This document shows positions 434 through 33,131 of a stretch of 64,000 nucleotides of DNA, in pieces. Each line of letters begins with the position of its first letter. Position 1 is the stretch's first letter. The stretch covers positions 889,207 through 953,206 of the forward strand of contig NZ_LT593746.1 of assembly GCF_900089075.1 (NCBI RefSeq). The letters are read 5' to 3'. This stretch comes from Vaginella massiliensis. GTDB lineage: Bacteria > Bacteroidota > Bacteroidia > Flavobacteriales > Weeksellaceae. Made by a program: the position numbers and the translations under genes. The notes under the pieces are model-generated. The model saw only the letters and a program-made list of their open reading frames with translations, searched no databases and was not told the origin of the DNA.

Positions 434-1414
434 TTACTTCTTCAACTGACTCGGTAAAATTCCAAATTTTCGTTTGAAAGCTGCCGAAAAATGGCGTTGG
501 TTTTTGTAACCGATTAATTGTGAAACTTCGCCCACATTCATATCTTCTTCAGTCAGCAATTGTTTTGCCTGGTTCATTTTGGCATCGCTCCAAAATCCGA
601 AAACCGTGGTGCCGAACAGCTCTTTAAATCCTTTTTTCAGAATAAAGTCATTCGTACCAACAAGATGAGCCAAATCGATAAGTGTACACGCTGCATCCAG
701 ATGTTGCAGGATAAATTCTCTTACCGCATATATTTTATCTACATCCGATTTTTTGAGTGTAGAATGAGAAAAAGTATCATTTGAAAACTGTTCTAGCTGA
801 AGCAACAAAAGTTCAATGACCTTGGCTTCCAGAAACATCCGTTTAAAAATTCCCTGACGTTGGCAATTCATAATTTCGTCAACTATCTGGTACATTTTAT
901 GACTAACAGGGTGATGGTTTTGTGTCAGTAATGCTGATTTCCCTTTCTCCATAGCATTACGGAACGCATCAAAAAGGTGGTGATTTTGTGGTAGGAATTT
1001 TTTAAAAAAATCAGGAGAAAGATTGATTTCACAAAGTTGAAACTCTTCGCTTTCCCATTGCATTTTACCGCATATTTCATTTGCATAGATAATGTTGTGT
1101 TGGTGAGAGACGAAACCTATTGATTTATCTAAGCCCCCTGTACTAACTGTACTTTTCCCTTTTAGGGCAAAATGCATCTCAATCGTTTCAAAATCACTTT
1201 CAAAATCAAGGCGTATGGTATTGCGTAAAAAAGTATTACCAAAGCCGATATGAACTCCTTCAAATAAAATTTCTTTATAAAAACCTTTACCAAAATAGTG
1301 TTCTATAAAGGTTGTGTTTTCAATAATATCTTTGTCCGTAGATATATTCCAGTCCGGATATTCCTTTTCTATGAGTGTAATGTTTTCCTCATTGTCATAC
1401 AACCGTAAATTCAT
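434..1414 (-). CDS. AraC family transcriptional regulator
   Basis: A 326-residue protein. The last 100 or so residues form the AraC-type double helix-turn-helix domain: a first HTH around LIDLAHLVGTNDFILKKGFK and a second around VGEVSQLIGYKNQRHFSAAF, ending in the usual FGILPSQ motif. The N-terminal two thirds has no clear similarity beyond the sensor region of PchR/YbtA-like regulators. It is divergent from the ABC transporter/siderophore-interacting-protein operon that starts 80 bp away, with two palindromes between them. This is the layout of siderophore-responsive AraC activators, so the likely role is control of that operon in response to an iron chelate. The ligand is inferred, not seen. 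Confidence 0.88.
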   Translation of the reverse strand: MNLRLYDNEENITLIEKEYPDWNISTDKDIIENTTFIEHYFGKGFYKEILFEGVHIGFGNTFLRNTIRLDFESDFETIEMHFALKGKSTVSTGGLDKSIGFVSHQHNIIYANEICGKMQWESEEFQLCEINLSPDFFKKFLPQNHHLFDAFRNAMEKGKSALLTQNHHPVSHKMYQIVDEIMNCQRQGIFKRMFLEAKVIELLLLQLEQFSNDTFSHSTLKKSDVDKIYAVREFILQHLDAACTLIDLAHLVGTNDFILKKGFKELFGTTVFGFWSDAKMNQAKQLLTEEDMNVGEVSQLIGYKNQRHFSAAFKRKFGILPSQLKK

Positions 1415-1433
1415 TTGTATTTATATTAATTAA

Positions 1434-1446
1434 TCCGTACTACGGA
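1434..1446. promoter_or_regulatory. palindrome TCCGTA-C-TACGGA, candidate operator
   Basis: A perfect 6-bp inverted repeat with a 1-bp centre lies 20 bp upstream of the AraC start and 45 bp upstream of the transporter promoter -7 element. Its position between divergent genes makes it a candidate operator. Function is inferred. Confidence 0.45.
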
Positions 1447-1470
1447 CATTTTAATCCCTCTTACATACCT

Positions 1471-1486
1471 GTTAGAATAATCTAAC
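1471..1486. promoter_or_regulatory. palindrome GTTAGA-ATAA-TCTAAC, candidate operator
   Basis: A perfect 6-bp inverted repeat with a 4-bp spacer ends 5 bp before the -7 element of the transporter operon. A protein bound here would touch the polymerase, as expected for AraC activators. Function is inferred. Confidence 0.5.
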
Positions 1487-1490
1487 TTTT

Positions 1491-1498
1491 TATATTTG
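1491..1498 (+). promoter_or_regulatory. Bacteroidota-type -7 promoter element for the siderophore operon
   Basis: TATATTTG matches the TAnnTTTG -7 consensus of Bacteroidota primary sigma factor promoters. Transcription would start near 1505, which rules out the upstream in-frame TTG at 1496 and supports the ATG at 1553 as the first start. No convincing -33 TTTG was seen, which fits a promoter that needs an activator. Confidence 0.55.
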
Positions 1499-1552
1499 CA
1501 CAAAGTTATAAATTATTTAGAACCATTCTTAATAGAAAGTAATATTTTACCA

Positions 1553-3304
1553 ATGAATGAAAAAAAACGAAAAAAAACCGGAATAGCACGGCTGTTGGAA
1601 ATTGCCGGAAGACGGAGAGGATTACTATTTGTATCGGGATTTCTGGCGGTGGTTCACGCTGTGTTGAGCTTGGTTCCTTACATCCTGATGTTTTATATCA
1701 TCAGGGAACTGACGAAGGAAACGGTAGATTTTACGCTTACAAGAACATATATTGTATATGCAGTGATTGCAGCTATTATCAGTATGGCTTTGTTGTTTCT
1801 GTCTGGAATTTTATCGCATATTGCGGCTTTCAATATTCTGTACGAACTTCGGAAATTCATTGCAGAAAAAGTAGGGAAAATGCCGATGGGCTACCTGAAC
1901 AACCATAATTCGGGAGCATTGAAAAAAATCCTATCGGACGATGTGGAACGGATTGAAAGTTTCATTGCCCACCAGATTCCCGATTTCGTGAAAGGAATTG
2001 CGTTGCCCATCATTACCATTGTTTATTTGTTTTCACAAGATTGGCGTTTGGCAGCCATTAGTTTTGTACCGTTGCTGGTATTGGCGATTATGCTTCCCAA
2101 AATGTATGGTGGACGGAACAAGCAACTCATCAAAGACTATCATCAATCCTTGGAAGATATGAATGCAGGCATTGTGGAATACGTTCGGGCAATGCCGGTG
2201 ATGAAAATCTTCGGACAATCGGCAGAAACATTTGACAAATACGGTAACACGGTCAAATGTTTCAATAATTTCGTTGCTGAATGGGTCAAAAGCAGTACTC
2301 CTGGTTTTGCCGTATTTATGAGTTTTACAAGCAATGCAATGCTCCCCGTATTGGCTCTTGGTCTGTATCTGTACTTCCAAAATGGTGTTACGCTGGCTAC
2401 ATTGTTGCTCTTCTTGATTTTGGGAACGGGTTATATCAAACCCCTCTTTGTGCTGAGTAATATGGGAATGCAGCTTTCCATCATCAACCGTGGTGTGGAG
2501 CAAATTGATGAACTGTTAGGACAAAATGATTTAGAAGAAAATACAGTAATTCAAAAACCTGAAAACTATAACATCGAATTTCAGGATGTTTCTTTTGCTT
2601 ATCAGGATAAAAATTGGGTGTTAAACAATATCAATTTTGAAATCAAAGAGAAGACCATAACTGCATTAGTCGGACCTTCGGGAGCAGGAAAAAGTACGGT
2701 CGGTCAGTTGTTATCAAGATTCTGGGATGTGAATAATGGCGGAATTTATATTGGAGGAAAGGACATCAGGGAATATCCTACGGAACAATTAATGCAGATG
2801 GTATCGTTTGTTTTTCAGGACAGTTTTATGTTTCAGCAGAGTATGTATGATAATATAAAGATGGGAATGAATAAAACCCGTGAAGAGGTAGAAAAAGCAG
2901 CTAAGGCGGCACAAATCCACGATTTGATTTTGAGTCTGCCCAATGGTTACGATACCTTATTCGGGCAATCGGGTGTACATCTGAGTGGTGGCGAACAGCA
3001 ACGTTTTCAATTGGCAAGAGCCATTCTGAAAGATGCACCGATATTGATTCTGGACGAAGCCACAGCCTTTGCCGACCCCGAGAATGAATATAAGATACAA
3101 CAAGCATTCAGAGAATTGATAAAAGATAAAACAGTATTAATCATTGCACATAGATTGAGTACGATTACCGATGCCGACCAGATTTTGTTATTTGATAAAG
3201 GAAAATTATCTGCAAAAGGAAAACACAATGAACTGTTGGTGCAAAGTGAATTGTATCAACGGATGTGGAATGCCCATATCAGAGCCAAAGAATTTGTAAT
3301 TTAA
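1553..3304 (+). CDS. ABC transporter, fused permease/ATPase half (IrtA/YbtP-like)
   Basis: A 583-residue half transporter from the ATG at 1553. It has an N-terminal exporter-fold membrane domain of about six helices (residues 20-320), then a nucleotide-binding domain with Walker A GPSGAGKST (374-382), signature LSGGEQ (477-482) and Walker B ILILDEAT (497-504). It is first in an operon with a siderophore-interacting flavoprotein (15 bp downstream) and, three genes on, a second half transporter. Type IV exporter-fold importers such as mycobacterial IrtAB and yersinial YbtPQ take up ferric siderophores as heterodimers of this kind, and IrtA carries a SIP domain. Import of an iron chelate is therefore the best inference; lipid or drug export remains possible. 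Confidence 0.85.
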   Translation: MNEKKRKKTGIARLLEIAGRRRGLLFVSGFLAVVHAVLSLVPYILMFYIIRELTKETVDFTLTRTYIVYAVIAAIISMALLFLSGILSHIAAFNILYELRKFIAEKVGKMPMGYLNNHNSGALKKILSDDVERIESFIAHQIPDFVKGIALPIITIVYLFSQDWRLAAISFVPLLVLAIMLPKMYGGRNKQLIKDYHQSLEDMNAGIVEYVRAMPVMKIFGQSAETFDKYGNTVKCFNNFVAEWVKSSTPGFAVFMSFTSNAMLPVLALGLYLYFQNGVTLATLLLFLILGTGYIKPLFVLSNMGMQLSIINRGVEQIDELLGQNDLEENTVIQKPENYNIEFQDVSFAYQDKNWVLNNINFEIKEKTITALVGPSGAGKSTVGQLLSRFWDVNNGGIYIGGKDIREYPTEQLMQMVSFVFQDSFMFQQSMYDNIKMGMNKTREEVEKAAKAAQIHDLILSLPNGYDTLFGQSGVHLSGGEQQRFQLARAILKDAPILILDEATAFADPENEYKIQQAFRELIKDKTVLIIAHRLSTITDADQILLFDKGKLSAKGKHNELLVQSELYQRMWNAHIRAKEFVI

Positions 3305-3319
3305 TTGAAGAATATAAAA

Positions 3320-4132
3320 ATGAAAAATTTCAACCCCATACAAGCAGAACTCAACGTAAGTCGAAAAGAATACCTCACACCCCATTACATCCGTATCTAT
3401 CTGACTGGTGAAAAAGTACCGTTGTTTGACAACACGACCGTTGGAGTGAACAACAAAATTCTGATTCCGCCAAAAGGGGTACACAAAATCTACTTCCCTG
3501 AATTTGACTACGAAAAGAGACAATGGCTGCCAATGCCCGAAGATGTTCGCCCCGTTGTACGTACTTATACCCATAGAGGAATTGATTTGAAAACCAATGA
3601 AATCTGGATAGATTTTGTAGCTCACGGGGACGAAGGTCCCGCCTCTGCGTGGGCCATTGGGGCTAAAGAAGGCGATGTATTAGGCGTATTGATGAAAGAC
3701 GGCAAAACAGAGCTGTATGCCAAAGCTGAAAATTATTTGTTGGTAGCCGATCCCACGGGAATTCCTGTTGTGGCAGCCATATTGGAAGACCTGCCCGAAA
3801 CGGCAAAAGGCACTTGCATCATCGAAGTACACGGAAAAGAAGACGAGCAGGATTTGCAAACAGTAGCAAACATTGATTTTATCTGGGTACATAATGAGCA
3901 TCCTCAAAACGGAAGCCAATTGGCAGAAACGTTAAAACAACAAACTCTGCCCGAAGTTTCAAGGTCGGGATACATAGCTGCTGAATTTTCAACAGTAAAA
4001 GAAATACGTCAGTATCTACGGAAAGAAAAAGGTTGGAAACAGGAAGAACTGTATGCGTATTCGTATTGGAAAGCTGGCGTGTCCGAGGACAAATCAACTG
4101 ATGATCGGCATAAGGAGAAAGAAGAACATTAA
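3320..4132 (+). CDS. siderophore-interacting protein (SIP family flavin reductase)
   Basis: A 270-residue protein from the ATG at 3320 (an in-frame TTG at 3305 is less likely). It has the FAD-binding motif RTYTHR, the family motif AHGDEGPASAWA, a central NAD(P)H-binding segment and the typical C-terminal YAYSYWKAG. These are hallmarks of the SIP family (ViuB/YqjH-like), cytoplasmic enzymes that reduce ferric siderophores to release Fe(II). It sits between two half transporters of an importer-like type and was probably acquired with them. In mycobacterial IrtA the same function is fused to the transporter. Substrate is unknown. Confidence 0.87.
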   Translation: MKNFNPIQAELNVSRKEYLTPHYIRIYLTGEKVPLFDNTTVGVNNKILIPPKGVHKIYFPEFDYEKRQWLPMPEDVRPVVRTYTHRGIDLKTNEIWIDFVAHGDEGPASAWAIGAKEGDVLGVLMKDGKTELYAKAENYLLVADPTGIPVVAAILEDLPETAKGTCIIEVHGKEDEQDLQTVANIDFIWVHNEHPQNGSQLAETLKQQTLPEVSRSGYIAAEFSTVKEIRQYLRKEKGWKQEELYAYSYWKAGVSEDKSTDDRHKEKEEH

Positions 4133-4143
4133 TTCGTGTAAAA

Positions 4144-5121
4144 ATGAAAATACTCAATTTGAACTTTAAGTTTGGAATGTTTTTGCTGCTTGTATTCAGT
4201 ACAATTATTTTCTTCGGAAATAATGTTTTTGGACAGCAAGTCAGTAAATCGAATGAAATACTTCAAACATCTTTTCAGAATGAAAATCCGCTTTATTTGG
4301 TAAATATTGGGAGTGGAGATTTAGCGGTTCGCTATAAAAAGGGTAAAGGTACACCACTCGTTTTTGTACACGGTTCCTGGGATGACCACCATTCCTGGAT
4401 GCCTGTAGCGGTACAATTGACCAGAGAATTAAATAATCCTATTATCATTTATGACAGAAGAGGGCATGGTGCTTCTTCTCCAGATACACAACAAGGAACA
4501 ATTTCTCAGGATGTAAATGATGTTTTGTTACTCATAACAAAATTAGGATTTGAAAAAGCTCATTTTATTGGTCATTCTTATGGAGCTAATATTGTTGTGC
4601 AATTGGCTTCCCTTTATCCTGAAAAAGCGGAAAGCATTGTGTTGTATGAACCGCCAATATTTGGGTTATTGAAAGATAAACCCGAATACAAAACAGAGAT
4701 GCAAGCGGTCAAAAAAGCAATGACAACAGCAAAAACTTTATTAGAAAACGGGAGCGTTGAAGAGGGAACCATTCATTTCGTAGAAAAGGTTGCATTTGGA
4801 GAAAACAGTTGGCAAGACATCTTTGATGAACGTGCAAGAAGTACAATGACAGCCGATTTCAGAACCTGGTTAGACCAATCAAACGACCCCGAAAGACTTA
4901 ACATCCAACCTGAAAACCTGAATAATTTCAAAGGAAATATTACGGTCATTTCAGGAACGGCTTCTATTCCAGTTTATCCAGCTGTGGTGGAGGAATTAAA
5001 AAGAAAAGTGAGTAAAATACGCACAAAAACCATTCCTGATGCAGCTCACGGTGGGTTAGTTTCTCATCCTACCGAAACCAGTAATGTTATATTAGAACAT
5101 ATAAAAAAATCTGAAAAATGA
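4144..5121 (+). CDS. secreted alpha/beta hydrolase
   Basis: A 325-residue alpha/beta-fold hydrolase. The first 30 residues are a signal peptide or membrane anchor ending ...NNVFGQQ, so it is probably exported to the periplasm. The oxyanion-region motif HGSWDDHHSW follows the second core strand, the nucleophile elbow is GHSYG with Ser145, and the C-terminal catalytic His is in DAAHGG. It overlaps the next gene by 4 bp (ATGA), so translation is coupled. In the siderophore operon it might hydrolyse an ester siderophore or its breakdown product, but a general esterase role cannot be excluded. Confidence 0.75.
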   Translation: MKILNLNFKFGMFLLLVFSTIIFFGNNVFGQQVSKSNEILQTSFQNENPLYLVNIGSGDLAVRYKKGKGTPLVFVHGSWDDHHSWMPVAVQLTRELNNPIIIYDRRGHGASSPDTQQGTISQDVNDVLLLITKLGFEKAHFIGHSYGANIVVQLASLYPEKAESIVLYEPPIFGLLKDKPEYKTEMQAVKKAMTTAKTLLENGSVEEGTIHFVEKVAFGENSWQDIFDERARSTMTADFRTWLDQSNDPERLNIQPENLNNFKGNITVISGTASIPVYPAVVEELKRKVSKIRTKTIPDAAHGGLVSHPTETSNVILEHIKKSEK

Positions 5122-5867
5122 ACTATCAAACAAAAATAAAATGGGCATTTGCATCGGCAATAGTCGCCTCTATATGCTGGATTATCGGCGATATCTTTGT
5201 TGCCGGTTTTGAAGTTAATCCGACAGATTACCCCTTATTTTCAAAAGATTATGCCGATAAAGTAGATGTCGGTCTCGCTACTTTGATGTTGGAAGGATCG
5301 ACTAATCGATTGATATTCGGAGCTTTGATTGCTTCTATGACTGCTATACTGTTCTTACCCGGCGTTTGGCTGGCTTATCAATTTATAAAGGATAAATCCA
5401 AATGGTACGCTTGTGGAACTTATTGTCTTTTGGTGCTGAGTGTATTGCTGATGCCACTGGGGCACGCTGTTTTTTTCTTTACAGGGGAAATTCACAAAGC
5501 CATCTATCATACCGATAAAATTGCTCATCCATATCTGTTGGAAACGGCATCCGGATTTATGAAAGTGCATTACATTACGTGGGGAACTGCGATTATCGTA
5601 TTGCTGTTAAGCTGGCTTATTTTTTCAGTATTGGTATTCTCCGGAAAAACAATTTTACCCAAATGGGCTGGGCTAATCAGTCTGGTATTTATTACTATTT
5701 ATCAGATACCTTTCAATCTTTTGCTGCCTCCTTCGGATATCAAAGGATATCTCGGTTCAGCTGGTTTCAATATAGCGTATCTGATTTTCTTTGTTTTGTT
5801 GCTAATATTATTCAGACAAAAATTAATCACTTTCAATTCTCAAATTTCAACTAAACAAGATGATTAA
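5118..5867 (+). CDS. multi-pass membrane protein of unknown function
   Basis: A 249-residue protein with about six or seven hydrophobic helices (for example around residues 8-30, 65-87, 95-120, 150-175, 182-205, 215-235) and short polar loops. No catalytic motif is recognised. It overlaps the hydrolase upstream by 4 bp and the second ABC half transporter downstream by 8 bp, so it is co-translated with both. It may be an accessory membrane component of the uptake system or act on the released ligand. This is inference from position only. Confidence 0.6.
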   Translation: MNYQTKIKWAFASAIVASICWIIGDIFVAGFEVNPTDYPLFSKDYADKVDVGLATLMLEGSTNRLIFGALIASMTAILFLPGVWLAYQFIKDKSKWYACGTYCLLVLSVLLMPLGHAVFFFTGEIHKAIYHTDKIAHPYLLETASGFMKVHYITWGTAIIVLLLSWLIFSVLVFSGKTILPKWAGLISLVFITIYQIPFNLLLPPSDIKGYLGSAGFNIAYLIFFVLLLILFRQKLITFNSQISTKQDD

Positions 5868-7593
5868 AAACTTAAAATACGTTACTTCATTCAACAAAAA
5901 AGAAACCTGGCAGGTAGCTTTTTGGGAAATCATACACAGCATTTTTGTGGCTGCTCCATCAGGAATTTTGTTGGTTATTATATGGGAATTGTTCTCAGAA
6001 CATCCGAATATCCGGAAGATATGGACAGTCGTAGGCTTAATGGCAGTGATGCTCCTCATACAGTTTTTCATCGCTTCCAGATCAATGGTTAAATCCAATG
6101 TCTGGGTGTATGATTTATCTACCAAACTCCGAATTCATTTAGGCAATTGCATACAGAAATTCTCATTGGGATTTTTTAAGAAAAAAGATCCGGGCGAAAT
6201 TGCCTCCATTGTATTACAGGATGTAGCCAATTTTGAAGGAATATTTGGGCATAGTGTAGGCAATCTGGCATCGGCAGCTTTTGGAACAGTAGTACTTTCA
6301 GTATTCCTGTTTATATACGATTGGAGGCTGGCTCTCTGTCTGCTGGCAGCCTTGCCCTTGATCTTTCCGTTTTTGCAATTAGCAAATTATTTCGTGAGCA
6401 AATTAGGTAAAAAACAAATTGCCGCACGCAACACAATGGGTGCAAAATTTCTCGAATACGTACAAGGCATCCGTCATTTGAAATCCTACGGACAAACGGG
6501 CGAAAGGCATAAAGGATTAGAAAATGCTTTTGAAGATTTACGCAAAAAAAGCATCAAAATGGAAGCTATTCCGGGACCGTTTGTCATCACGGCAGGTGTG
6601 GTTTTTGAAATTGGTTTTCTGGCGATGGTGGCTTTGGGGCTGTATTATTTGAGCGGAAATTCCATTACTGTTCCCGTATTGATTACATTTTTAATAATGG
6701 GTTACAATCTATATAATCCACTCAAAGTGGTAATGGTGGATTATTTGGTTTTACGTTATATGAATGAAAGTCTGAACCGTGTAATCAACGTTTTGGAAGA
6801 ACCGACAATGGAAACCGACAAAAACGAAATTCCTACACGTTTTGATATTGCTTTTGAAAATGTGCGTTTTGGTTATCTGGATAAAACAACTGTTCAGGAT
6901 TTGAACTTTATCGTGCCCGAGAAGTCAATGACCGCTTTGGTCGGGCATTCCGGTTCGGGTAAAACAACCATTGCCTCACTCGTAGCCCGTTTCTGGGATG
7001 TCAATTCCGGCAGTATAAAAATCGGAGGTGTGGATATCAGGAACATCAATCAGGATAAATTCTACGGATTAATCAGTGAAGTATTTCAGGAAGTGTATCT
7101 GTTTGACGACACCATTTACAACAACATCAAAATCGGTAAGCCCAATGCTACAAAGGAAGAAATCATTGAAGCAGCCGACAAAGCACAGGTATTGAGCTTT
7201 GCCTGGGAATTTCCTGAAGGAATGGACACGATGGTCGGCGAAGGGGGCAGCAAACTTTCGGGCGGACAAAAGCAACGTATCAGTATTGCACGGGCTTTAC
7301 TGAAAGATGCACCTATTGTTCTATTAGACGAGGCTACTGCTTCACTCGATCCCGAAAACGAAATTTATATCCAAAAAGCTATTCAGGAATTGGTGAAATC
7401 TAAAACAGTATTGGTTATCGCTCACAAGCTGGCTACTATTCAAAAAGCCAATCAAATCATCGTTCTGAAAGAAGGAAGAATTGCCGAAAAGGGAGAACAT
7501 TCAGCATTACTATCCCAAGGAGGTATCTATCAAAAAATGTGGGATATACAGCAAAAAACAGGGGGTTGGAAAGTGAAGAAAATTGATTCATAA
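5860..7593 (+). CDS. ABC transporter, fused permease/ATPase half (IrtB/YbtQ-like)
   Basis: A 577-residue half transporter: membrane domain in residues 15-305, nucleotide-binding domain with Walker A GHSGSGKTT (362-370), signature LSGGQKQR and Walker B IVLLDEATASLDPE. It resembles the first half transporter in length and layout but is clearly diverged, as expected for the two partners of a heterodimer. It is last in the overlapping gene chain that starts at 1553. Together the two would form one exporter-fold transporter, probably importing a ferric siderophore. Confidence 0.85.
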   Translation: MIKNLKYVTSFNKKETWQVAFWEIIHSIFVAAPSGILLVIIWELFSEHPNIRKIWTVVGLMAVMLLIQFFIASRSMVKSNVWVYDLSTKLRIHLGNCIQKFSLGFFKKKDPGEIASIVLQDVANFEGIFGHSVGNLASAAFGTVVLSVFLFIYDWRLALCLLAALPLIFPFLQLANYFVSKLGKKQIAARNTMGAKFLEYVQGIRHLKSYGQTGERHKGLENAFEDLRKKSIKMEAIPGPFVITAGVVFEIGFLAMVALGLYYLSGNSITVPVLITFLIMGYNLYNPLKVVMVDYLVLRYMNESLNRVINVLEEPTMETDKNEIPTRFDIAFENVRFGYLDKTTVQDLNFIVPEKSMTALVGHSGSGKTTIASLVARFWDVNSGSIKIGGVDIRNINQDKFYGLISEVFQEVYLFDDTIYNNIKIGKPNATKEEIIEAADKAQVLSFAWEFPEGMDTMVGEGGSKLSGGQKQRISIARALLKDAPIVLLDEATASLDPENEIYIQKAIQELVKSKTVLVIAHKLATIQKANQIIVLKEGRIAEKGEHSALLSQGGIYQKMWDIQQKTGGWKVKKIDS

Positions 7594-7676
7594 ATGTGAC
7601 TTTGGTTACATTAAATCAATATTGTCATTCTTAAATTTACATAATAGTAATTGTTTAACTTTAATAAATAGTAAAT

Positions 7677-8438
7677 ATGGGAAAATTAGCAGATAAAGTA
7701 ACCATTATTACCGGAGGTTCCGGAGCAATTGGTTCAACAACAGCAAAGTTGTTTTTAAATGAAGGAGCAAAAGTGGTATTGGTAGATATCAATGAGGAAG
7801 CATTAAGTAAAGTAGCTTCAGAATTAAATAGTCCGAATGTAAGCTTTGTTGCCGCCGATGTTACAAAATCAGATGACGTACAGAAATACGTAAAACATAC
7901 TGTGGACACTTTTGGGAAAATAGACATATTCTTCAACAATGCGGGTATCGAAGGAGTTGTTAAACCAATCACAGAATATCCTGAAGAAGTTTTTGACAAA
8001 CTTATTGCCGTTAATGTAAAAGGCGTATGGTTGGGTATTAAATATGTATTACCACAGATGAATGATGGCGGAAGTATCATTAATACTTCTTCGGTTGCTG
8101 GGCTGGTAGGTTCACCAAATGTATCAGCTTATGTAACCAGTAAGCACGCTGTCATCGGGATTACCCGTACCGTTGCAAATGAAGCTGCATCAAGAAATAT
8201 ACGTGTTAATTCTATTCATCCTTCACCTGTTGATAATCGCATGATGCGTTCTTTGGAAGAGGGTTATGCACCAGGGGAAGCTGAAGCAGCAAAAAAAGGT
8301 TTTGAAGCTACTATTCCTTTAAAGAGATATGCTACTAATGAAGACATTGCAAATGGAGTTTTGTTTCTCGCTTCTGATGACAGTAAATTTATTACCGGAA
8401 TGAAATTGGTCATCGATGGCGGTATGACAATGGCTTAG
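7677..8438 (+). CDS. short-chain dehydrogenase/reductase (SDR)
   Basis: A 253-residue classical SDR. Visible motifs are the cofactor-binding TGGSGAIG (12-19), NNAG (87-90), catalytic Ser139, and Tyr152-x3-Lys156 in AYVTSK. Asp37 at the end of the second strand suggests NAD(H) preference. The C-terminus (GMKLVIDGGMTMA) is typical. It lies 83 bp after the ABC transporter and ends at a strong terminator, so it may be the last cargo gene or a separate unit. The substrate is unknown. Confidence 0.85.
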   Translation: MGKLADKVTIITGGSGAIGSTTAKLFLNEGAKVVLVDINEEALSKVASELNSPNVSFVAADVTKSDDVQKYVKHTVDTFGKIDIFFNNAGIEGVVKPITEYPEEVFDKLIAVNVKGVWLGIKYVLPQMNDGGSIINTSSVAGLVGSPNVSAYVTSKHAVIGITRTVANEAASRNIRVNSIHPSPVDNRMMRSLEEGYAPGEAEAAKKGFEATIPLKRYATNEDIANGVLFLASDDSKFITGMKLVIDGGMTMA

Positions 8439-10497: not shown

Positions 10498-10563
10498 TTT
10501 ATAATTTTTTAAATGTTCGGGCGTGAATTTAGAGGCTCTGAAGAGTGGCTATAAGAATGTGGC

Positions 10564-10594
10564 AGTCATTGGCAGTGTGTGGCTGTGTTTGGCT
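10564..10594 (-). repeat. copy of a dispersed ICE motif (GCCAAACACAGCC form)
   Basis: Read on the minus strand, the mobB-mobC gap contains GCCAAACACAGCCACACA and CACTGCCAATGACTGCC. The core matches the GCCAAACACTGCC repeats at 12716-12752 in 12 of 13 positions. It lies upstream of mobC. Confidence 0.5.
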
Positions 10595-12715: not shown

Positions 12716-12752
12716 TGCCAAACACTGCCTTTGAACGCCAAACACTGCCACC
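12716..12752 (+). repeat. tandem copies of a dispersed ICE motif (TGCCAAACACTGCC)
   Basis: TGCCAAACACTGCCTTTGAA (12716-12735) is followed at once by CGCCAAACACTGCCACC (12736-12752). The first copy matches the stretch at 29378-29397 in 18 of 20 positions, and a weaker copy lies at 19202-19220. Confidence 0.6.
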
Positions 12753-14972: not shown

Positions 14973-15617
14973 ATGGAAATAGTAATTGTAATATGCCTGC
15001 TGATAGTCATTGCCCTGTTTTTACAGGACAAGATTGTTATTAAACGGAAGTCGGAACAAAAACCGAAACAGGAAAAAGTTAACCCAAATCTGCCCGATAT
15101 TATGGGGCAACCAAAGCCCGTAAGAAGCCAATCCCTGCCAAATCCTGCCAATCAACGCCAGATAGCGGAACCGGAGGTAGATATTGATAATTTAGATATC
15201 GAATACGACGCAAATGAAAACGTAGGTATTCAACAAATTCCGCAGGAAGAATTGGACGAGGTCTTCAGTAATAATGTACCCGATTTAGCAGAGGAAGAAG
15301 AAGATTTGAACAGGTACAGAACATCCGGTAGCGATGACGGTTTTGCCCAGGGGGTTACCTTTGAAGAACTAAACAGCGTGGGGGTGTTGCTCCAAAAAGA
15401 AACATTGGAACCAGCCCAAAAGGAAACAGCGATTGATATAGTTCAAAGATTACAGGGAACCGAATTATTTGCTCTACTCGAAAGTTCAATGCAAGGTGCT
15501 TCCAAAAAGATTGCCGAGCTTTTGGACAGCACACTTTCATCATCTGATACCGAAGCCGGTTCTTCCAATTTGCGGAAAAATGGTTTTGAGGATTTTGACA
15601 TTGGGGAGTTTGTGTGA
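14973..15617 (+). CDS. traD: conjugal transfer protein TraD (CTnDOT type)
   Basis: A 214-residue protein with one N-terminal membrane helix (residues 1-18, IVIVICLLIVIALFL) and a long polar, Pro/Glu/Asp-rich cytoplasmic region; the C-terminal part has predicted helices around QRLQGTELFALLESS. Position and composition fit the TraD of CTnDOT-type transfer operons (unrelated to F-plasmid TraD). It is the last gene before the inverted Hachiman insertion. Confidence 0.68.
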   Translation: MEIVIVICLLIVIALFLQDKIVIKRKSEQKPKQEKVNPNLPDIMGQPKPVRSQSLPNPANQRQIAEPEVDIDNLDIEYDANENVGIQQIPQEELDEVFSNNVPDLAEEEEDLNRYRTSGSDDGFAQGVTFEELNSVGVLLQKETLEPAQKETAIDIVQRLQGTELFALLESSMQGASKKIAELLDSTLSSSDTEAGSSNLRKNGFEDFDIGEFV

Positions 15618-15651
15618 GCGAATTCCTCAATATTTATAAATTTAAAAATAT

Positions 15652-18228
15652 CTATAATAATATTAAGTTAATTTCATCATATTCAATTGCTTCCTTGTCT
15701 AATTTTTGTTTCAACTTTTGTAAATTGATTTCAACCAACTTGTCACCTTCAATTTTTAAGCAATCTTTGAAATTTTTATAAAGATAATCAGCCGAATGTC
15801 GGGATAAACCATAATTCTGCAACGCAATTACAATAGAATTTTGAGTTCCATATTCAAGAAAAGTAGCCCAATTTACACCTGCATTTTCTTCGCCTAAAAT
15901 TTCAACCAACATTGCATAATAGTTGTTGAAATACTTTTCTAAAAGAAAACGTAAAACATATTCAATATCATCAATAATACTTCCAATAAGAATATTGATA
16001 TGTTGCTTGCTTCCATTAAAGTGTTCAAGTTTTATTCCACTTTCGTCATAGCCTGCCCGTATTTTTCCTTTTGAGGTTGAATAAAAGGCAATAGATTGCG
16101 TAATGATTTGATTTAATGAAACGCCATTTATCCATTGATTCATCAACATAGCATAATAATCAAGCTGAGCTTTTGATTTAAACTGCTTTTCTTCTGTTTG
16201 CCATTTGAATAAATCATAAAGTTTATGCAGCCATTCTTTGCAAACGTCATAATCAACTTTTGCAGGTAATTTTATAGTTGTTGGATTGTCTTTTTGCTTT
16301 TGTAATGCTATAAATACTTCATTTTGTATTTTTAGTTTAATTGAATTGTTTGTACTAAGCACCGATGATGGGACTTCAATTTTTCCATTTTTCTTTTTTG
16401 CTAAATCAATTATTTCTTGTTTATTCTCTTGAATTAACTTTTTGATAATTTCACTTTGATAATTTGACCTTTCAATTTCAAGCGTGTCAATGCTGATAAT
16501 ATTAGCAATATATTTTAAAATCTCCTTAATGGTTTCGCTCTCATTCTTTATGTCGGGATTTTCATTTAATAGTTCTTCTATTTTTTTTAATTTCTTGTCA
16601 ATGTAATTCTCAACAGTAGGATTAAGTAAAATCTCTGTTTTATTTTCTAAAAGGCTTTCGGGCTTTTTCCAAGCCTTTTCATTCTCTTTTAAACAAATTA
16701 TATTGCCTGACAATTCATATCTCAATCGACCTGCCCGACCTGCAAGATTCCAAAAGTCAATAGGTTGAAAATTATTCCGACCATTTTTATTATTGAGAAT
16801 GAAAACATTTTTTGCAGGCATATTTACACCCTCTAAAAGAGTGGAAGTGCAAAATACATATCCGATTTCTCTACCTTTAAACAGTGCTTCAACCTTATTT
16901 CTAATAATTTGAGGAAGATTACCAAAGTGATAAGCTATACCTTTGTTTAGAAAATCAGCCAAATAATAATCCTTATGAATATAACCTTTAATTTGTCTGA
17001 TTACCTTTTTGACATTATTGGATTTTGTTGGCTCATGCTGGTTAAAAAAGCTAAACATTTTTTCGGCTTTATCAACAGCCTCAAACTTTGAGCTACAATA
17101 CACAATATTGTTTGTGTTTTTTCCTAATGCAGAAAGAACATTATAAATATTGTCTGCATTTTGGATAATATCGGGTTCAAACTGATATTGTTCTGTTTCT
17201 AAATAATGAACAACTTTATTTTCTGTTAAATCGACAAAAAACAAGTTTTGTGATACAGGAGTTTCTTTGGTTTTGTAGTTAAGCGTTTCATCTTTTTTAA
17301 ATAGTTTTAAAAAGACTTCTGGATTAGAAACATTTGGGGAGGCAAAATATAGATTGAGATTTTTGTTTTGCTTCAATGATTTTGAAATGGCCGAATATGC
17401 AGTAACCGCTCTTGTATCTTTTTCGGCTGCTAATTTGTGAGCTTCATCAACAAACAAATAGGCAAAAGACGGATTACCTTTTTGCGATAAATAACTCAAT
17501 AACCTTTCTGGTGTTAATACAAAAATATATCGTTGTTGGCTTTCAGACGGCAATTCAGAAACACTACTATTTGTTACAACTTTGTAATTGTAATGTTCCA
17601 AAATTACTTTCAACTCTTTGTTTAAGTCAATAGAAAACTGATTTATCAAGGCTCTTGTCGGAACCATTATCACAATATTTTCAGGCGGTTTATTACCTAC
17701 AACCTTTCTGATAAAAGATTTGATAATAAATGATTTTCCCATTGAAGTTGGTCCCGAAAAGCTAAAATGTTTTGAATTACTGATTTTAGTATAAAGTTCA
17801 AATTGAGAATCTGTAAAAATTAAATCTTCGGTATCAGGAACTGCCTGAATAAACTCTTTGACTTTCTTTTCAACATCTCTTTCAAACGGCAATTCAGAGA
17901 TATTTTCATCTTCATTTTTCAGGTATTCAATCGCTGGAAAGTTCCCCAATTTGGCTAAAACTGAATGTGAAAAAGTTTTATAGTAAGGATTGGACTTGTG
18001 TTTTGGATTTAATAATGTGATTATGTGATAAGCCTTATTTCTTGACGCAGGATTTTTTGAGTTGGATAAAATATCAGCAAATCGAAGCAAGTCGCTTAAC
18101 TCTTTTTCGTTAAATTCATCTGATTCGGCTTCTGAAAAGAGTTTATTAGCAAACAGTTTCGCAGCTTTATTGTATAAAGCCGTGAAATATGTATCTTGTA
18201 AAACATCTGTTGCTAAACTTTCAATCAT
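15652..18228 (-). CDS. hamB: Hachiman defence helicase HamB
   Basis: An 858-residue superfamily 2 helicase. Motifs in order are Walker A GPTSMGKS (159-166), VPTRALINQ (motif Ia, 189-197), DEAH (261-264), the TSTLLEGVNMPAKNV segment (461-475) and NLAGRAGR (494-501), followed by a long alpha-helical C-terminal region. HamB of Hachiman is a DEAD/DEAH-box helicase that senses damaged or invading DNA and controls the HamA nuclease. It is translationally coupled to hamA (TAATG overlap at 18226-18230) and reads against the tra operon. It is visibly more AT-rich than the tra genes. Confidence 0.85.
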   Translation of the reverse strand: MIESLATDVLQDTYFTALYNKAAKLFANKLFSEAESDEFNEKELSDLLRFADILSNSKNPASRNKAYHIITLLNPKHKSNPYYKTFSHSVLAKLGNFPAIEYLKNEDENISELPFERDVEKKVKEFIQAVPDTEDLIFTDSQFELYTKISNSKHFSFSGPTSMGKSFIIKSFIRKVVGNKPPENIVIMVPTRALINQFSIDLNKELKVILEHYNYKVVTNSSVSELPSESQQRYIFVLTPERLLSYLSQKGNPSFAYLFVDEAHKLAAEKDTRAVTAYSAISKSLKQNKNLNLYFASPNVSNPEVFLKLFKKDETLNYKTKETPVSQNLFFVDLTENKVVHYLETEQYQFEPDIIQNADNIYNVLSALGKNTNNIVYCSSKFEAVDKAEKMFSFFNQHEPTKSNNVKKVIRQIKGYIHKDYYLADFLNKGIAYHFGNLPQIIRNKVEALFKGREIGYVFCTSTLLEGVNMPAKNVFILNNKNGRNNFQPIDFWNLAGRAGRLRYELSGNIICLKENEKAWKKPESLLENKTEILLNPTVENYIDKKLKKIEELLNENPDIKNESETIKEILKYIANIISIDTLEIERSNYQSEIIKKLIQENKQEIIDLAKKKNGKIEVPSSVLSTNNSIKLKIQNEVFIALQKQKDNPTTIKLPAKVDYDVCKEWLHKLYDLFKWQTEEKQFKSKAQLDYYAMLMNQWINGVSLNQIITQSIAFYSTSKGKIRAGYDESGIKLEHFNGSKQHINILIGSIIDDIEYVLRFLLEKYFNNYYAMLVEILGEENAGVNWATFLEYGTQNSIVIALQNYGLSRHSADYLYKNFKDCLKIEGDKLVEINLQKLKQKLDKEAIEYDEINLILL

Positions 18229-19136
18229 TATTCTGCCAATGTAATTTTCTTGATAATATCTTTTCTTGTTTCATCCAACCTCATAAATGGAAAAACATAC
18301 ACGTAAAAAGTATAACCGTGTAAGTTATATTCTTCAATTTTCTTTTTGATATGCTCCATTTTCCCTCTCACTTCTTCCTTTATCTGCTCTTTTATTGTTT
18401 TTAGAAAATCAGAATTGCTTAATCTTTTTTCCTCGTCTGTTGGATTGATTTCAAATCCTGCAAAAATTGCAAAAGCATTATTCTTAGTGATTGGTTGTTC
18501 CGAATTCGCTTTCGGCATTATAACAGATTTCAAAAACTGATAAAGGTCTTCATCAAATGCTTCTTTACATAGTTGTGAACTCAAAAGACCAATTTCATCA
18601 TTGATATTGCTTTTGTCTCTTGTTGTAAAATCGTGAATTGATTTAAAAGCGTTTGAAATTGAAGTTGTGAGTTTTTGTTCTAATTTAGATTCACCGAAAA
18701 TCAAATGATAGTCGTTGTTAGTAACTTTTAATAAATGAACTCCATCAGAAACTTTTGCATAGTCTTTTGATGAAAGTTTTATTTCTAACTTCGTTAGTAT
18801 TTTGGGAGCTTTTAAGTGAGATTCCAAAAAACAATAAAGCAGCAATTCCCCTGCTTCTCCATCATTTACATTATAATCTCGAAATTTTGAGGCAGCTTTT
18901 GTATAAAGCTCCCCATATCTTCTGTCTTTCTCAAAATCTTGTATTTCTTTTCTTGAAAGTGAAAAGGAAATAAAATGATTTCTTAAATGATTAACCAATT
19001 CGGGATAACAAAATTGATTGTTTTCAATTTTCAGAATATGCAAATTGAGCTTTGAGTGAGTATCTGGAATATCACATTCAATTTCGTTAGAAAAGAGTTC
19101 TAAAAAAGTTTCGTTTAAAGTAGATTTTAGTTCCAA
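18228..19136 (-). CDS. hamA: Hachiman defence nuclease HamA (DUF1837)
   Basis: A 302-residue protein of the DUF1837/HamA family. The family core is visible: EAGELLLYCFLESHLKAP (94-111), SDGVHLL (130-136) and FGESK (147-151), giving a PD-(D/E)xK-like set with Asp131, Glu149 and Lys151. HamA is the effector nuclease of Hachiman, held off by HamB and released on infection to degrade DNA. The frame has no ATG before residue 260 and an in-frame stop 2 codons upstream, so the start is the TTG at 19136. It directly precedes hamB, the standard Hachiman order. Confidence 0.85.
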   Translation of the reverse strand: MELKSTLNETFLELFSNEIECDIPDTHSKLNLHILKIENNQFCYPELVNHLRNHFISFSLSRKEIQDFEKDRRYGELYTKAASKFRDYNVNDGEAGELLLYCFLESHLKAPKILTKLEIKLSSKDYAKVSDGVHLLKVTNNDYHLIFGESKLEQKLTTSISNAFKSIHDFTTRDKSNINDEIGLLSSQLCKEAFDEDLYQFLKSVIMPKANSEQPITKNNAFAIFAGFEINPTDEEKRLSNSDFLKTIKEQIKEEVRGKMEHIKKKIEEYNLHGYTFYVYVFPFMRLDETRKDIIKKITLAE

Positions 19137-19201
19137 AATTCAGTCAGCTAATCAATTTGAGCTAAAGTAGTACTATTTTTTTGATATTAAAAGCCACTCA
19201 A

Positions 19202-19220
19202 CGCCAAATCATTCCTTTGA
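19202..19220 (+). repeat. degenerate copy of the dispersed ICE motif upstream of traE
   Basis: CGCCAAATCATTCCTTTGA agrees with the copy at 12716 in 14 of 19 positions. It lies 97 bp before traE, where a new promoter is needed if hamAB blocks read-through from traA. Confidence 0.35.
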
Positions 19221-19316
19221 CTGCCACTTTGTTATACCCCTTTGATTTCCGAAACACCTTTGTCCCGAAAGTCCGCAAGGTGCGGGATAACAATAACAAA
19301 TTAATGTGTTTCAATT

Positions 19317-19622
19317 ATGGAAAAACAGAGAAAAAAAGTTTTGCTGGCAGCCGTGGCAATGCTGTCAGGAATTGGTGCGTTCGCACAGGGAAACGGTTCG
19401 GCTGGTATCAACGAGGCTACCCAAATGGTAACGTCTTATTTCGACCCCGCAACCCAATTAATCTACGCCATCGGTGCGGTAGTTGGGCTCATCGGAGGCG
19501 TTAAGGTGTACAACAAATTCAGTTCGGGCGACCCCGACACGAGCAAGACTGCGGCAAGTTGGTTTGGTGCGTGTATTTTCTTAATCGTGGCGGCTACCAT
19601 ACTGCGTTCATTCTTCCTTTAA
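19317..19622 (+). CDS. traE: conjugal transfer protein TraE (DUF4134)
   Basis: A 101-residue protein with a signal peptide (residues 1-22, ending GIGAFAQ) and two hydrophobic helices (roughly 45-62 and 80-99). It matches the DUF4134/TraE family and has the layout of a VirB2-like pilin or channel subunit. It restarts the tra operon to the right of the Hachiman insertion. Confidence 0.8.
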   Translation: MEKQRKKVLLAAVAMLSGIGAFAQGNGSAGINEATQMVTSYFDPATQLIYAIGAVVGLIGGVKVYNKFSSGDPDTSKTAASWFGACIFLIVAATILRSFFL

Positions 19623-29377: not shown

Positions 29378-29397
29378 TGCCAAATACTGCCTTTCAA
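29378..29397 (+). repeat. copy of the dispersed ICE motif (TGCCAAATACTGCC)
   Basis: TGCCAAATACTGCCTTTCAA matches the copy at 12716-12735 in 18 of 20 positions. It lies 69 bp before the start of the HTH gene pair. Confidence 0.55.
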
Positions 29398-29465
29398 AGC
29401 CACAGGGTGCAACCTTTCCCAACCCTGCAAAAAGCCTTTATAAATTCGACTTCCACAGAAAAATA

Positions 29466-31602: not shown

Positions 31603-32409
31603 TTAACCAACCTTTATCGGTTGGGTGCGGTAGTCTTTCAGATTGTGGAAAAATCCCCTGTATTCGGTCATTCCATAACGAAACAAATCCCAAAGCAACC
31701 CACAACCCATTTGAGCCAATGAGCCATTGATAAATAAATCCTGCTTTTGCAAGGCTTCGGCAAGTGAGCAACTTGGTGTGTCGTCCTGTTCTTCGGACTG
31801 CTTCAGCAAATCTCCAAATTCTTCGGTAACAAATGGCAGGCTTGCCACCGTTTGGTACTTTTCTGAGTTGGGTTGTTTAATTTCCCCGATTGTAGATAAC
31901 AGCACTTGCCCTGTATGTTGGCTGTTCCCAAAATCCAACCAATATTTTGGGGTATCTCTGTAATTTTTACGGTTGCTAAATACGCTCAATATTTCAGCAA
32001 CACCAAACCTTGCCTGTACATTATCTACGCAAGTAATGGTAATGGTAGCGTGTGCTACTTCGGGTATTTGTCCGAAATTATCCTTTTCAAATTTTCGGTT
32101 CTCGGCTTTCCAATTTGTACCGATACAACGGTTTACACGATTGATTAAAGCAACGGATTTATACAATCCTGTTTCGCTTTCAAAAAAACGCTGTCTGCCT
32201 AAATTGGCAGTCGTGATAATATCATCATCCCACAACCTTACGGATAATCCTGCGTGTCCCAAAGCCGTCAGACTTTCGTTAATCTCTAACAAGGCGGTCA
32301 ATACTTTTGAGCCTGTGCCACCTGCTCCGATAAGGTTTACCGTAATCGGGTTGGTTGGGTTTAACAGATAGTTATCTGTGAAATGTATTTTTGTTTTCTC
32401 GGTATTCAT
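31603..32409 (-). CDS. PRTRC system ThiF family protein
   Basis: A 268-residue protein from the ATG at 32409, which overlaps the protein B stop (ATGA). It has a ThiF/E1-like nucleotide-binding start GAGGTGSKVLTALLE (28-42), an acidic strand LWDDDIITTANLGRQRF that binds ATP in this family, and a later CVDN motif. It belongs to the PRTRC (ParB-related, ThiF-related) cassette of plasmids and ICEs. ThiF relatives adenylate small protein or peptide C-termini; the partner here is unknown. Confidence 0.85.
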   Translation of the reverse strand: MNTEKTKIHFTDNYLLNPTNPITVNLIGAGGTGSKVLTALLEINESLTALGHAGLSVRLWDDDIITTANLGRQRFFESETGLYKSVALINRVNRCIGTNWKAENRKFEKDNFGQIPEVAHATITITCVDNVQARFGVAEILSVFSNRKNYRDTPKYWLDFGNSQHTGQVLLSTIGEIKQPNSEKYQTVASLPFVTEEFGDLLKQSEEQDDTPSCSLAEALQKQDLFINGSLAQMGCGLLWDLFRYGMTEYRGFFHNLKDYRTQPIKVG

Positions 32410-33131
32410 CACAATAGATTTTTAAGGGTTTTGCTGTTCTTTTTTAATGCTTCTTTCGGAAAGGGTTTGTTTGTATTAACAAGGTCTATCCAAAGGCTTA
32501 CAATGTTCTTTTTGGTCAGATTACTGCACAATGAATGGCTGAAATAGGAATTGAAAAAATAATGTTCCCAAGCCTGTATAAATTCTTCAACCGAAGCCGA
32601 ATTTTTAATATCAATGCTTACCGTTCCCATACATACATTGCCCTTTTCGTAGATGTTGAAAAACGGGGCGTAATGCAAAGGTGTTTTCTCGGTGGGTCTT
32701 CTGTCGTTTGCCAAAGCAAATACAGTCAGACTGCTTTTACTCGCTAACCAAAGCATTGCAGGTACTTGTGCCATTCCGTTGGGAATGCCCAGACAGTCCA
32801 CAAAATACAGTTGCCTTTGCTGTGCTTTGGTGTACCATAGCACAGTGCCTTTATCAAGGCTCGGATTGATATGCAGAACATTGTTAGGCAAAATTCCTTT
32901 TGGCTTTAAAAAAGCGGTGTTCTTTTCTTCATCGGTCTGTAAACACTTTGCCAAAACATTGGCTTCTTTTACGGTCAATGGGTGGGCGTTGATAGGGTTG
33001 CCGTCCTTGTCCATATCGAAATGCTCTACATAGGTTTCTTTGTTCGTGCTGTTGGTTTCGTAAAAAACCAATGCGGATTTAGGAAAATAAAGCGTTCCGA
33101 AATTTGCTGTTATGTCGGTTACGTTGTTCAT
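32409..33131 (-). CDS. PRTRC system protein B
   Basis: A 240-residue protein matching PRTRC protein B: N-terminal beta-rich part with NFGTLYFPKSALVFYE, central MAQVPAMLWLASKSSLTVFAL, and a C-terminal helical part. It overlaps protein F and the ThiF gene by 4 and 3 bp, so the three are translated together. No enzyme motif is seen; function unknown. Confidence 0.82.
   Translation of the reverse strand: MNNVTDITANFGTLYFPKSALVFYETNSTNKETYVEHFDMDKDGNPINAHPLTVKEANVLAKCLQTDEEKNTAFLKPKGILPNNVLHINPSLDKGTVLWYTKAQQRQLYFVDCLGIPNGMAQVPAMLWLASKSSLTVFALANDRRPTEKTPLHYAPFFNIYEKGNVCMGTVSIDIKNSASVEEFIQAWEHYFFNSYFSHSLCSNLTKKNIVSLWIDLVNTNKPFPKEALKKNSKTLKNLL

What the first reader, a model, noticed from the sequence alone, without database searches (positions are those of the whole stretch)
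15652..19136. Inverted Hachiman antiphage system inside the tra operon
hamA (DUF1837 core with Asp131, Glu149, Lys151) and hamB (DEAH helicase) are adjacent and overlap (TAATG). They sit between traD and traE in reverse orientation and are visibly more AT-rich than the tra genes, so they were acquired later. The insertion splits an operon that is otherwise continuous in CTnDOT-type elements and needs traE to have its own promoter.
Basis: partly seen in the sequence, partly recalled or inferred. Interest (0 to 1): 0.75.

Follow-up and report, generated by a model that had tools for sequence, protein, structure and literature searches.

The report
Anti-phage genes in conjugation cargo slot
Two genes of a known anti-phage system, Hachiman, sit in a slot between two conjugation genes where related mobile elements each carry different cargo, often anti-phage systems, so the slot looks like a place where these bacteria trade immunity genes.

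Summary
18228-19136(-) is HamA1 (PADLOC E 2e-117) and 15652-18228(-) is HamB1 (E 0), sharing one base, GC 0.30 against 0.42-0.44 in the tra genes. Asp131, Glu149 and Lys151 are invariant in 7 of 7 aligned HamA. The traD-traE gap is a cargo hotspot: in 130 loci (103 non-identical) it spans 207 bp to 12.8 kb, median 4.3 kb; the traE-traF gap is 6-15 bp in 126 of 126. Of 59 annotated gaps, 32 hold a named defence system and 8 only a candidate. Near-identical backbones hold unrelated cargo and identical cargo sits on divergent backbones, pointing to swaps by homologous recombination. The insertion does not split a continuous operon: cargo-free sites have a terminator, then a conserved 124-bp traE leader with a promoter-like box. 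Cargo ending away from traE lacks that terminator (0 of 75 have it); cargo facing traE usually has it (21 of 24). In Bacteroidales-type elements the gap is 130-202 bp without cargo (13 of 13). Hachiman is a new member of a known kind; my searches found no report of this hotspot, in an incomplete library.

The parts
18228..19136 (-). hamA: HamA1 (DUF1837) effector nuclease, 302 aa, TTG start, D131/E149/K151
15652..18228 (-). hamB: HamB1 helicase, 858 aa, DEAH box; start overlaps the hamA stop (TAATG)
14973..15617 (+). traD, left border of the cargo slot
   Evidence: homologues in 134 of 320 family genomes; position
15597..15636 (+). T1: terminator-like hairpin with one arm in the 3' end of traD (imperfect in the window)
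   Evidence: 75 of 103 loci against 48 of 614 random segments
19193..19316 (+). conserved traE leader; conservation begins abruptly at 19193
19193..19226 (+). GCCA at 19193, 19203 and 19223 (10-bp phase)
19255..19262 (+). nAnnTTTG box, candidate -7 element of the traE promoter
   Evidence: 101 of 103 loci; function inferred
19272..19286 (+). five-pair hairpin in the leader, 4 of 5 pairs with a change on both sides in some sequence
   Evidence: 33 of 80 distinct leaders
19317..19622 (+). traE (DUF4134), right border of the cargo slot

Best explanation
The genes are a type 1 Hachiman system carried as exchangeable cargo in a hotspot of CTnDOT-related integrative and conjugative elements found mostly in Flavobacteriales and Sphingobacteriales. 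The slot lies at a transcription boundary: traA-D end in a terminator-like hairpin at the traD stop codon, and traE onward has its own conserved leader, so DNA placed between them interrupts neither unit. Cargo is replaced in blocks by homologous recombination between elements through the shared tra sequence on both sides. Most cargo ends facing away from traE and has no further terminator; cargo facing traE usually keeps a second terminator in front of the leader. [quoted passage not shown] Shown here: identity of the genes, motifs, hotspot, cargo swaps, conserved leader, terminator pattern. Inferred: promoter activity, the recombination route, anti-phage function.
For: HamA1/HamB1 profiles; catalytic residues invariant and matching the D-E(X)K motif of PMC12278908 (passages). 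Gap 207 bp to 12.8 kb, median 4.3 kb, in 130 loci, against 6-15 bp for traE-traF in 126 and 5-70 bp for traC-traD in 121. 32 of 59 gaps with a named defence system (scans). 22 pairs with backbone at least 95% alike and different cargo, 22 pairs with cargo at least 90% alike on a backbone at least 8 points more divergent; breakpoints at varying places. Conserved leader. T2 terminator in 21 of 24 traE-facing, 0 of 75 away-facing and 2 of 2 cargo-free sites; random 11 of 465. Same-genus element with Avs3a in the slot (L016).
Against: No transcription, transfer or phage data. The -7 box has its first T in only 2 of 103 loci and no -33 element was placed; a sigma-70 scan is at chance. T1 is missing by my search in 28 of 103 loci, including both cargo-free sites among the 130. 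The window's own hamAB shows no recent swap. Pairs and loci are related, so counts are not independent; no background rate of defence genes was measured, so enrichment is not shown. Breakpoints near cargo edges (L043/L052) also fit other mechanisms.
Confidence: 0.75

Rival explanations
1. One reading: a one-off late insertion that split a continuous tra operon and forced traE to have its own promoter.
For: Low GC; Bacteroidales-type elements have no cargo here.
Against: 128 of 130 measured loci have a gap over 700 bp, mostly with other cargo; cargo-free sites already have a terminator and the leader.
Confidence: 0.05
2. Cargo enters by a site-specific or transposition route, with the GCCA repeats or the cargo edges as the target, and not by homologous recombination.
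For: The right edge of conservation starts exactly at a GCCA repeat; in-phase GCCA repeats also lie in traD, on the other side of the cargo; identity changes at both cargo edges in L043/L052.
Against: No recombinase or transposase was recognised among the scanned cargo proteins (not all were scanned; L038 has transposase-like genes by my reading); breakpoints fall at different places in other pairs.
Confidence: 0.15
3. hamAB is an old, integral part of this element with a role in transfer or in excluding rival elements, and is not passing cargo.
For: Window and L013 copies have diverged together with traD and backbone (84.3, 83.5 and 86.8%).
Against: 128 of 130 loci lack HamA there; the same-genus element has Avs3a instead; composition is unlike the tra genes. 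A role against rival mobile elements, in addition to phages, is not excluded.
Confidence: 0.05

Closest known systems
Hachiman, HamAB of E. coli ECOR31 (PMC12278908, passages; PDB 8VX9)
   Same: Two adjacent genes, DUF1837 nuclease with D-E(X)K and an SF2 helicase
   Different: HamB here is 858 aa with DEAH; the ECOR31 chain in the PDB is 1174 aa with DEGH and a weak match (E 1e-7; DEGH). The closest solved HamB is 9wh1 (E 1.4e-172)
SXT/R391-type ICE hotspots (PMC12409358, passages)
   Same: Works like it: intergenic cargo sites among conserved transfer genes, defence systems as cargo, exchange by inter-ICE homologous recombination
   Different: Unrelated host group; the element here has Bacteroidota-type MobB and MobC; one site studied, between traD and traE, with a terminator-orientation pattern
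CTnDOT-type elements of Bacteroidales (L148-L152, L154, L155)
   Same: Gene order mobC-mobB-mobA / ParA-DUF3408-TraD-DUF4134-DUF4133-TraG ATPase in the annotated ones
   Different: traD-traE gap 130-202 bp without cargo. L153 has minus-strand genes in place of traD

Membership tests
Hachiman | HamA with DUF1837/HamA domain | tested here: met
Hachiman | HamB helicase beside hamA | tested here: met
Hachiman | D-E(X)K nuclease motif in HamA | tested here: met
   motif from PMC12278908
Hachiman | N-terminal helical domain of HamB that binds HamA | not tested
   no structure predicted; full-length match to the HamB1 profile only
Hachiman | protection against phage, loss with nuclease or helicase mutants | not testable with these tools
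   needs a bench assay
CTnDOT-related ICE | mobB/mobC and traA-F gene order of Bacteroidota elements | tested here: met
   MobC and MobB above NCBIfam cut-offs; DUF3408, DUF4134, DUF4133 and ParA; same order in named elements
CTnDOT-related ICE | IntDOT-type integrase and rte regulators | tested here: inconclusive
   a tyrosine recombinase at 37801-39054 matches generic models below their cut-offs; rte genes not searched
ICE cargo hotspot (works like SXT hotspots) | same intergenic site filled with different cargo in related elements | tested here: met
SXT/R391 ICE family | SXT core genes | not tested
   not claimed as a member; the only sign is a weak SXT_TraD match of MobC far below cut-off

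The most novel reading that the evidence does not exclude
After parting from the Bacteroidales CTnDOT line, these elements evolved a dedicated, transcriptionally insulated dock for immunity genes: a terminator at traD, a second terminator kept for cargo that faces traE, and an independently started traE unit. Defence cassettes are swapped into it in blocks across genera and orders, so the unidentified cargo in the same slot is rich in undescribed defence systems.
Probability: 0.45. Interest if true: 0.7.

Novelty: new member of a known kind. Interest (0 to 1): 0.5.

Why it matters
Hachiman here is ordinary, but the slot is a portable address (after traD, before the GCCA leader of traE) that can be read in elements across Flavobacteriales and Sphingobacteriales. 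In 59 gaps it carried 17 labels of named defence system, three of them loose, plus unnamed cargo, so it offers a list of candidate immune systems. The terminator-orientation pattern is a testable rule for how conjugation genes tolerate foreign cargo.

Tried and rejected
Rejected: a split of a continuous operon in this kind of element; plasmid copies of this DNA (one match only, 168 bases of the helicase in a Vibrio plasmid). Promoter and terminator consensus scans of the region were at chance (18 against 16.5 and 3 against 2.7) and were not used. No structure was predicted, because the profile matches were decisive. The plus-strand gene family in the gap of 19 of 58 loci (cluster 0, probably two families joined by single linkage) gave no match where I tried members: PADLOC and Pfam for one, NCBIfam for three.

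Limits of the counts. From the matches listed (a cut list) I fetched 60 places: all those of about 70% identity or more, and the next four (54-57%); 58 had both genes. Identical copies were removed only when letter for letter the same (130 to 103). PADLOC was run on 49 proteins for 49 of 93 cargo clusters; labels pass from a representative to its cluster. Among the 17 labels, the kinase (L019), the methylase/helicase (L028) and the Mokosh-like protein (L055) are loose. Of the 8 gaps with only candidate systems, two rest on weak or partial matches (L038, L061). The metal label of L044 rests on my reading of its sequence and not on a call. Two loci (L119, L147) lacked a leader by my search and were dropped from the orientation counts. 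The right-hand plus gene of L014, and so perhaps of L089, is probably a spurious small ORF, which would make two of the three exceptions away-facing. L145, a Dysgonomonas MAG (Bacteroidales by recall), has the other kind of element, with 4.9 kb in the gap.

In print? I looked (listings) and at passages of PMC6491836 and PMC5458099; a term search of PMC8694125 found none of traD, traE, accessory, restriction or hot. The library lacks many journals. PMC6491836 lists traABD and traEFG... as separate clusters in a Riemerella ICE (passage); PMC5458099 reports cation-efflux cargo and a lone methylase in ICEEa1, place not seen.

Full report
What is there. Two overlapping genes on the minus strand, 15652-18228 and 18228-19136, lie between traD and traE. 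Profiles name them HamB1 and HamA1, and Pfam agrees. The genes have 30% GC against 42-44% for the tra genes and 40% for the chromosome beyond the element. HamA was found in 7 of 320 genomes of the family at E up to 1e-20, this one included. One of them, G053 of another genus, has hamAB in the same slot (L013).

The slot. I measured the distance from the traD stop to the traE start in 130 loci: the window, 58 of 60 fetched from the family, and 71 of 80 named loci from Chryseobacterium, Flavobacterium, Sphingobacterium, Pedobacter, Empedobacter, Paenimyroides, a Dysgonomonas MAG and others. It ranges from 207 bp to 12.8 kb, median 4.3 kb; two are under 300 bp (L041, L069). The neighbouring gaps hardly vary: traE-traF 6-15 bp in 126 loci, traC-traD 5-70 bp in 121. 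In Bacteroidales-type elements the gap is 130-202 bp without cargo in 13 of 13 loci with both genes found, and 85 bp in a Hymenobacter plasmid; L153 and L161 had no traD match. The hotspot therefore seems to belong to the branch of elements in which the window lies and not to CTnDOT-type elements in general. A Flavobacteriales locus outside the 130 (L165, traD 57%) has a cargo-free gap of 279 bp, and L164 one of 3.6 kb.

The cargo. Of 59 annotated gaps (the window and 58 loci), 32 hold a named defence system: Gabija in 11, type II restriction-modification in 6, Kiwa in 5, SIR2-HerA in 4, type I restriction-modification in 4, CBASS in 3, Hachiman, Septu and class II Argonaute in 2 each, and single cases of SIR2-Argonaute, Avs3a, IetAS, PD-Lambda-3, a type IIG enzyme and three looser labels. 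A further 8 hold only candidate systems, two of them on weak matches, 8 metal-handling genes, 10 other genes, 1 nothing (scans). A gap can hold several systems. No background rate was measured, so I do not claim enrichment as shown. A species of the same genus has Avs3a in the slot, with a neighbour that matches Avs3b just under NCBIfam's cut-off (L016).

How cargo moves. L043 and L051 are 99.6% identical over 3.1 kb from traE and share no detectable cargo; L043 and L052 have identical cargo on backbones 87.6% alike. There are 22 pairs of each sort at my thresholds (pairs are not independent). Identity changes at different points in different pairs: at both cargo edges (L043/L052), after traE (L045/L106), or with traD included on the left (L043/L045). 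Varying breakpoints fit homologous recombination through the shared flanks. The hamAB pair itself shows no recent move: the window and L013 differ by about as much in cargo (84.3%) as in backbone (86.8%) and traD (83.5%).

The transcription boundary. Conservation upstream of traE begins abruptly at 19193 and runs for 124 bp (59 loci). This leader holds GCCA at 19193, 19203 and 19223, a box nAnnTTTG in 101 of 103 loci, and a five-pair hairpin in which 4 pairs show a change on both sides in at least one of 33 sequences. The box resembles the -7 element TAnnTTTG of Bacteroidota (recalled), but its first T is present in only 2 of 103 and I placed no -33 element; promoter function is inferred. Two cargo-free sites (L041, L069) have an intrinsic terminator T2 in front of the leader, and L165 shows one by eye. 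In loci with cargo T2 is present in 21 of 24 whose last gene faces traE and in 0 of 75 whose last gene faces away; random segments give 11 of 465 and 11 of 618. Grouped by similarity of the cargo end (31 groups, one counted twice), this is 9 groups with T2 and 2 without for traE-facing cargo, and 21 without for the rest. A second hairpin, T1, with one arm in the end of traD, is found in 75 of 103 loci against 48 of 614 random segments; in the window it is imperfect, and the two cargo-free sites lack it by my search.

Function. HamAB of E. coli is a nuclease-helicase pair in which HamB surveys DNA and, on meeting damage, activates HamA to degrade phage and host DNA (PMC12278908, passages). The sequence features tested agree. 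Anti-phage action of this copy is an inference. The best solved match for both proteins is 9wh1 (E 1.8e-12 for HamA, 1.4e-172 for HamB). In the phmmer alignment the HamA chain of that entry does not keep the E and K of the motif, so it is a relative and not a model of this active site.

Place in what is known. Hachiman is known, and ICE hotspots that carry defence genes are known from the SXT family (PMC12409358, passages). I found no report of the traD-traE slot in Bacteroidota (listings; passages; term search), in a library that lacks many journals. I rate it a new member of a known kind.

Noticed in passing
window 10560-10593(-), 12717-12750(+), 15127-15160(+), 19193-19226(+), 29379-29412(+): GCCA repeats in 10-bp phase, upstream of mobC, inside the traD coding sequence (out of step with codons) and in the traE leader. 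Three exact units in phase occur in the whole genome only at the first and third of these places (4 overlapping matches, reversed control 0); relaxed scan of the window 12 against a mean of 0.37 in simulated sequence and 12 against 2.59 in shuffles. Function unknown; perhaps sites of an element-encoded regulator.
   Followed up: partly
L066:1186-2016, L024:1197-1997, L049:11317-12966 and others: Plus-strand genes in the traD-traE gap of 19 of 58 loci, mostly right after traD (cluster 0), without a match in the libraries tried; in several loci they are the only cargo.
   Followed up: partly
L015, L017, L020, L023, L032, L048, L050 (traD-traE gap): A recurring block of five ORFs around a PDC-M68B candidate ATPase, twice next to Gabija (L020, L023); two of its other proteins matched nothing in Pfam or NCBIfam. 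A candidate defence operon.
   Followed up: partly
L046:3549-12967: IetAS, a PDC-S51 candidate and a protein with weak E1-like matches in one gap; the same cargo is about 97% identical in Paenimyroides (L119), Pedobacter (L105) and Pelobium (L108).
   Followed up: no
window 31603-33131(-): PRTRC cassette: ThiF-family protein above cut-off and protein B just under it.
   Followed up: no
window 434-8438: Other cargo near the left of the window: an AraC-like regulator, two MsbA-like ABC exporters (below curated cut-offs) and further genes named by my reading; perhaps iron uptake.
   Followed up: no
G000:C8:758148-758438 (outside the window): A second, distant DUF4134/TraE-like stretch in the same genome (E 5.6e-20), perhaps a second element.
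   Followed up: no
PDB 9wh1 chain A against window hamA: The solved 528-residue HamA relative lacks the E and K of the nuclease motif in the phmmer alignment, and its HamA-like part starts near residue 241, which suggests another effector in its N-terminal half.
   Followed up: no
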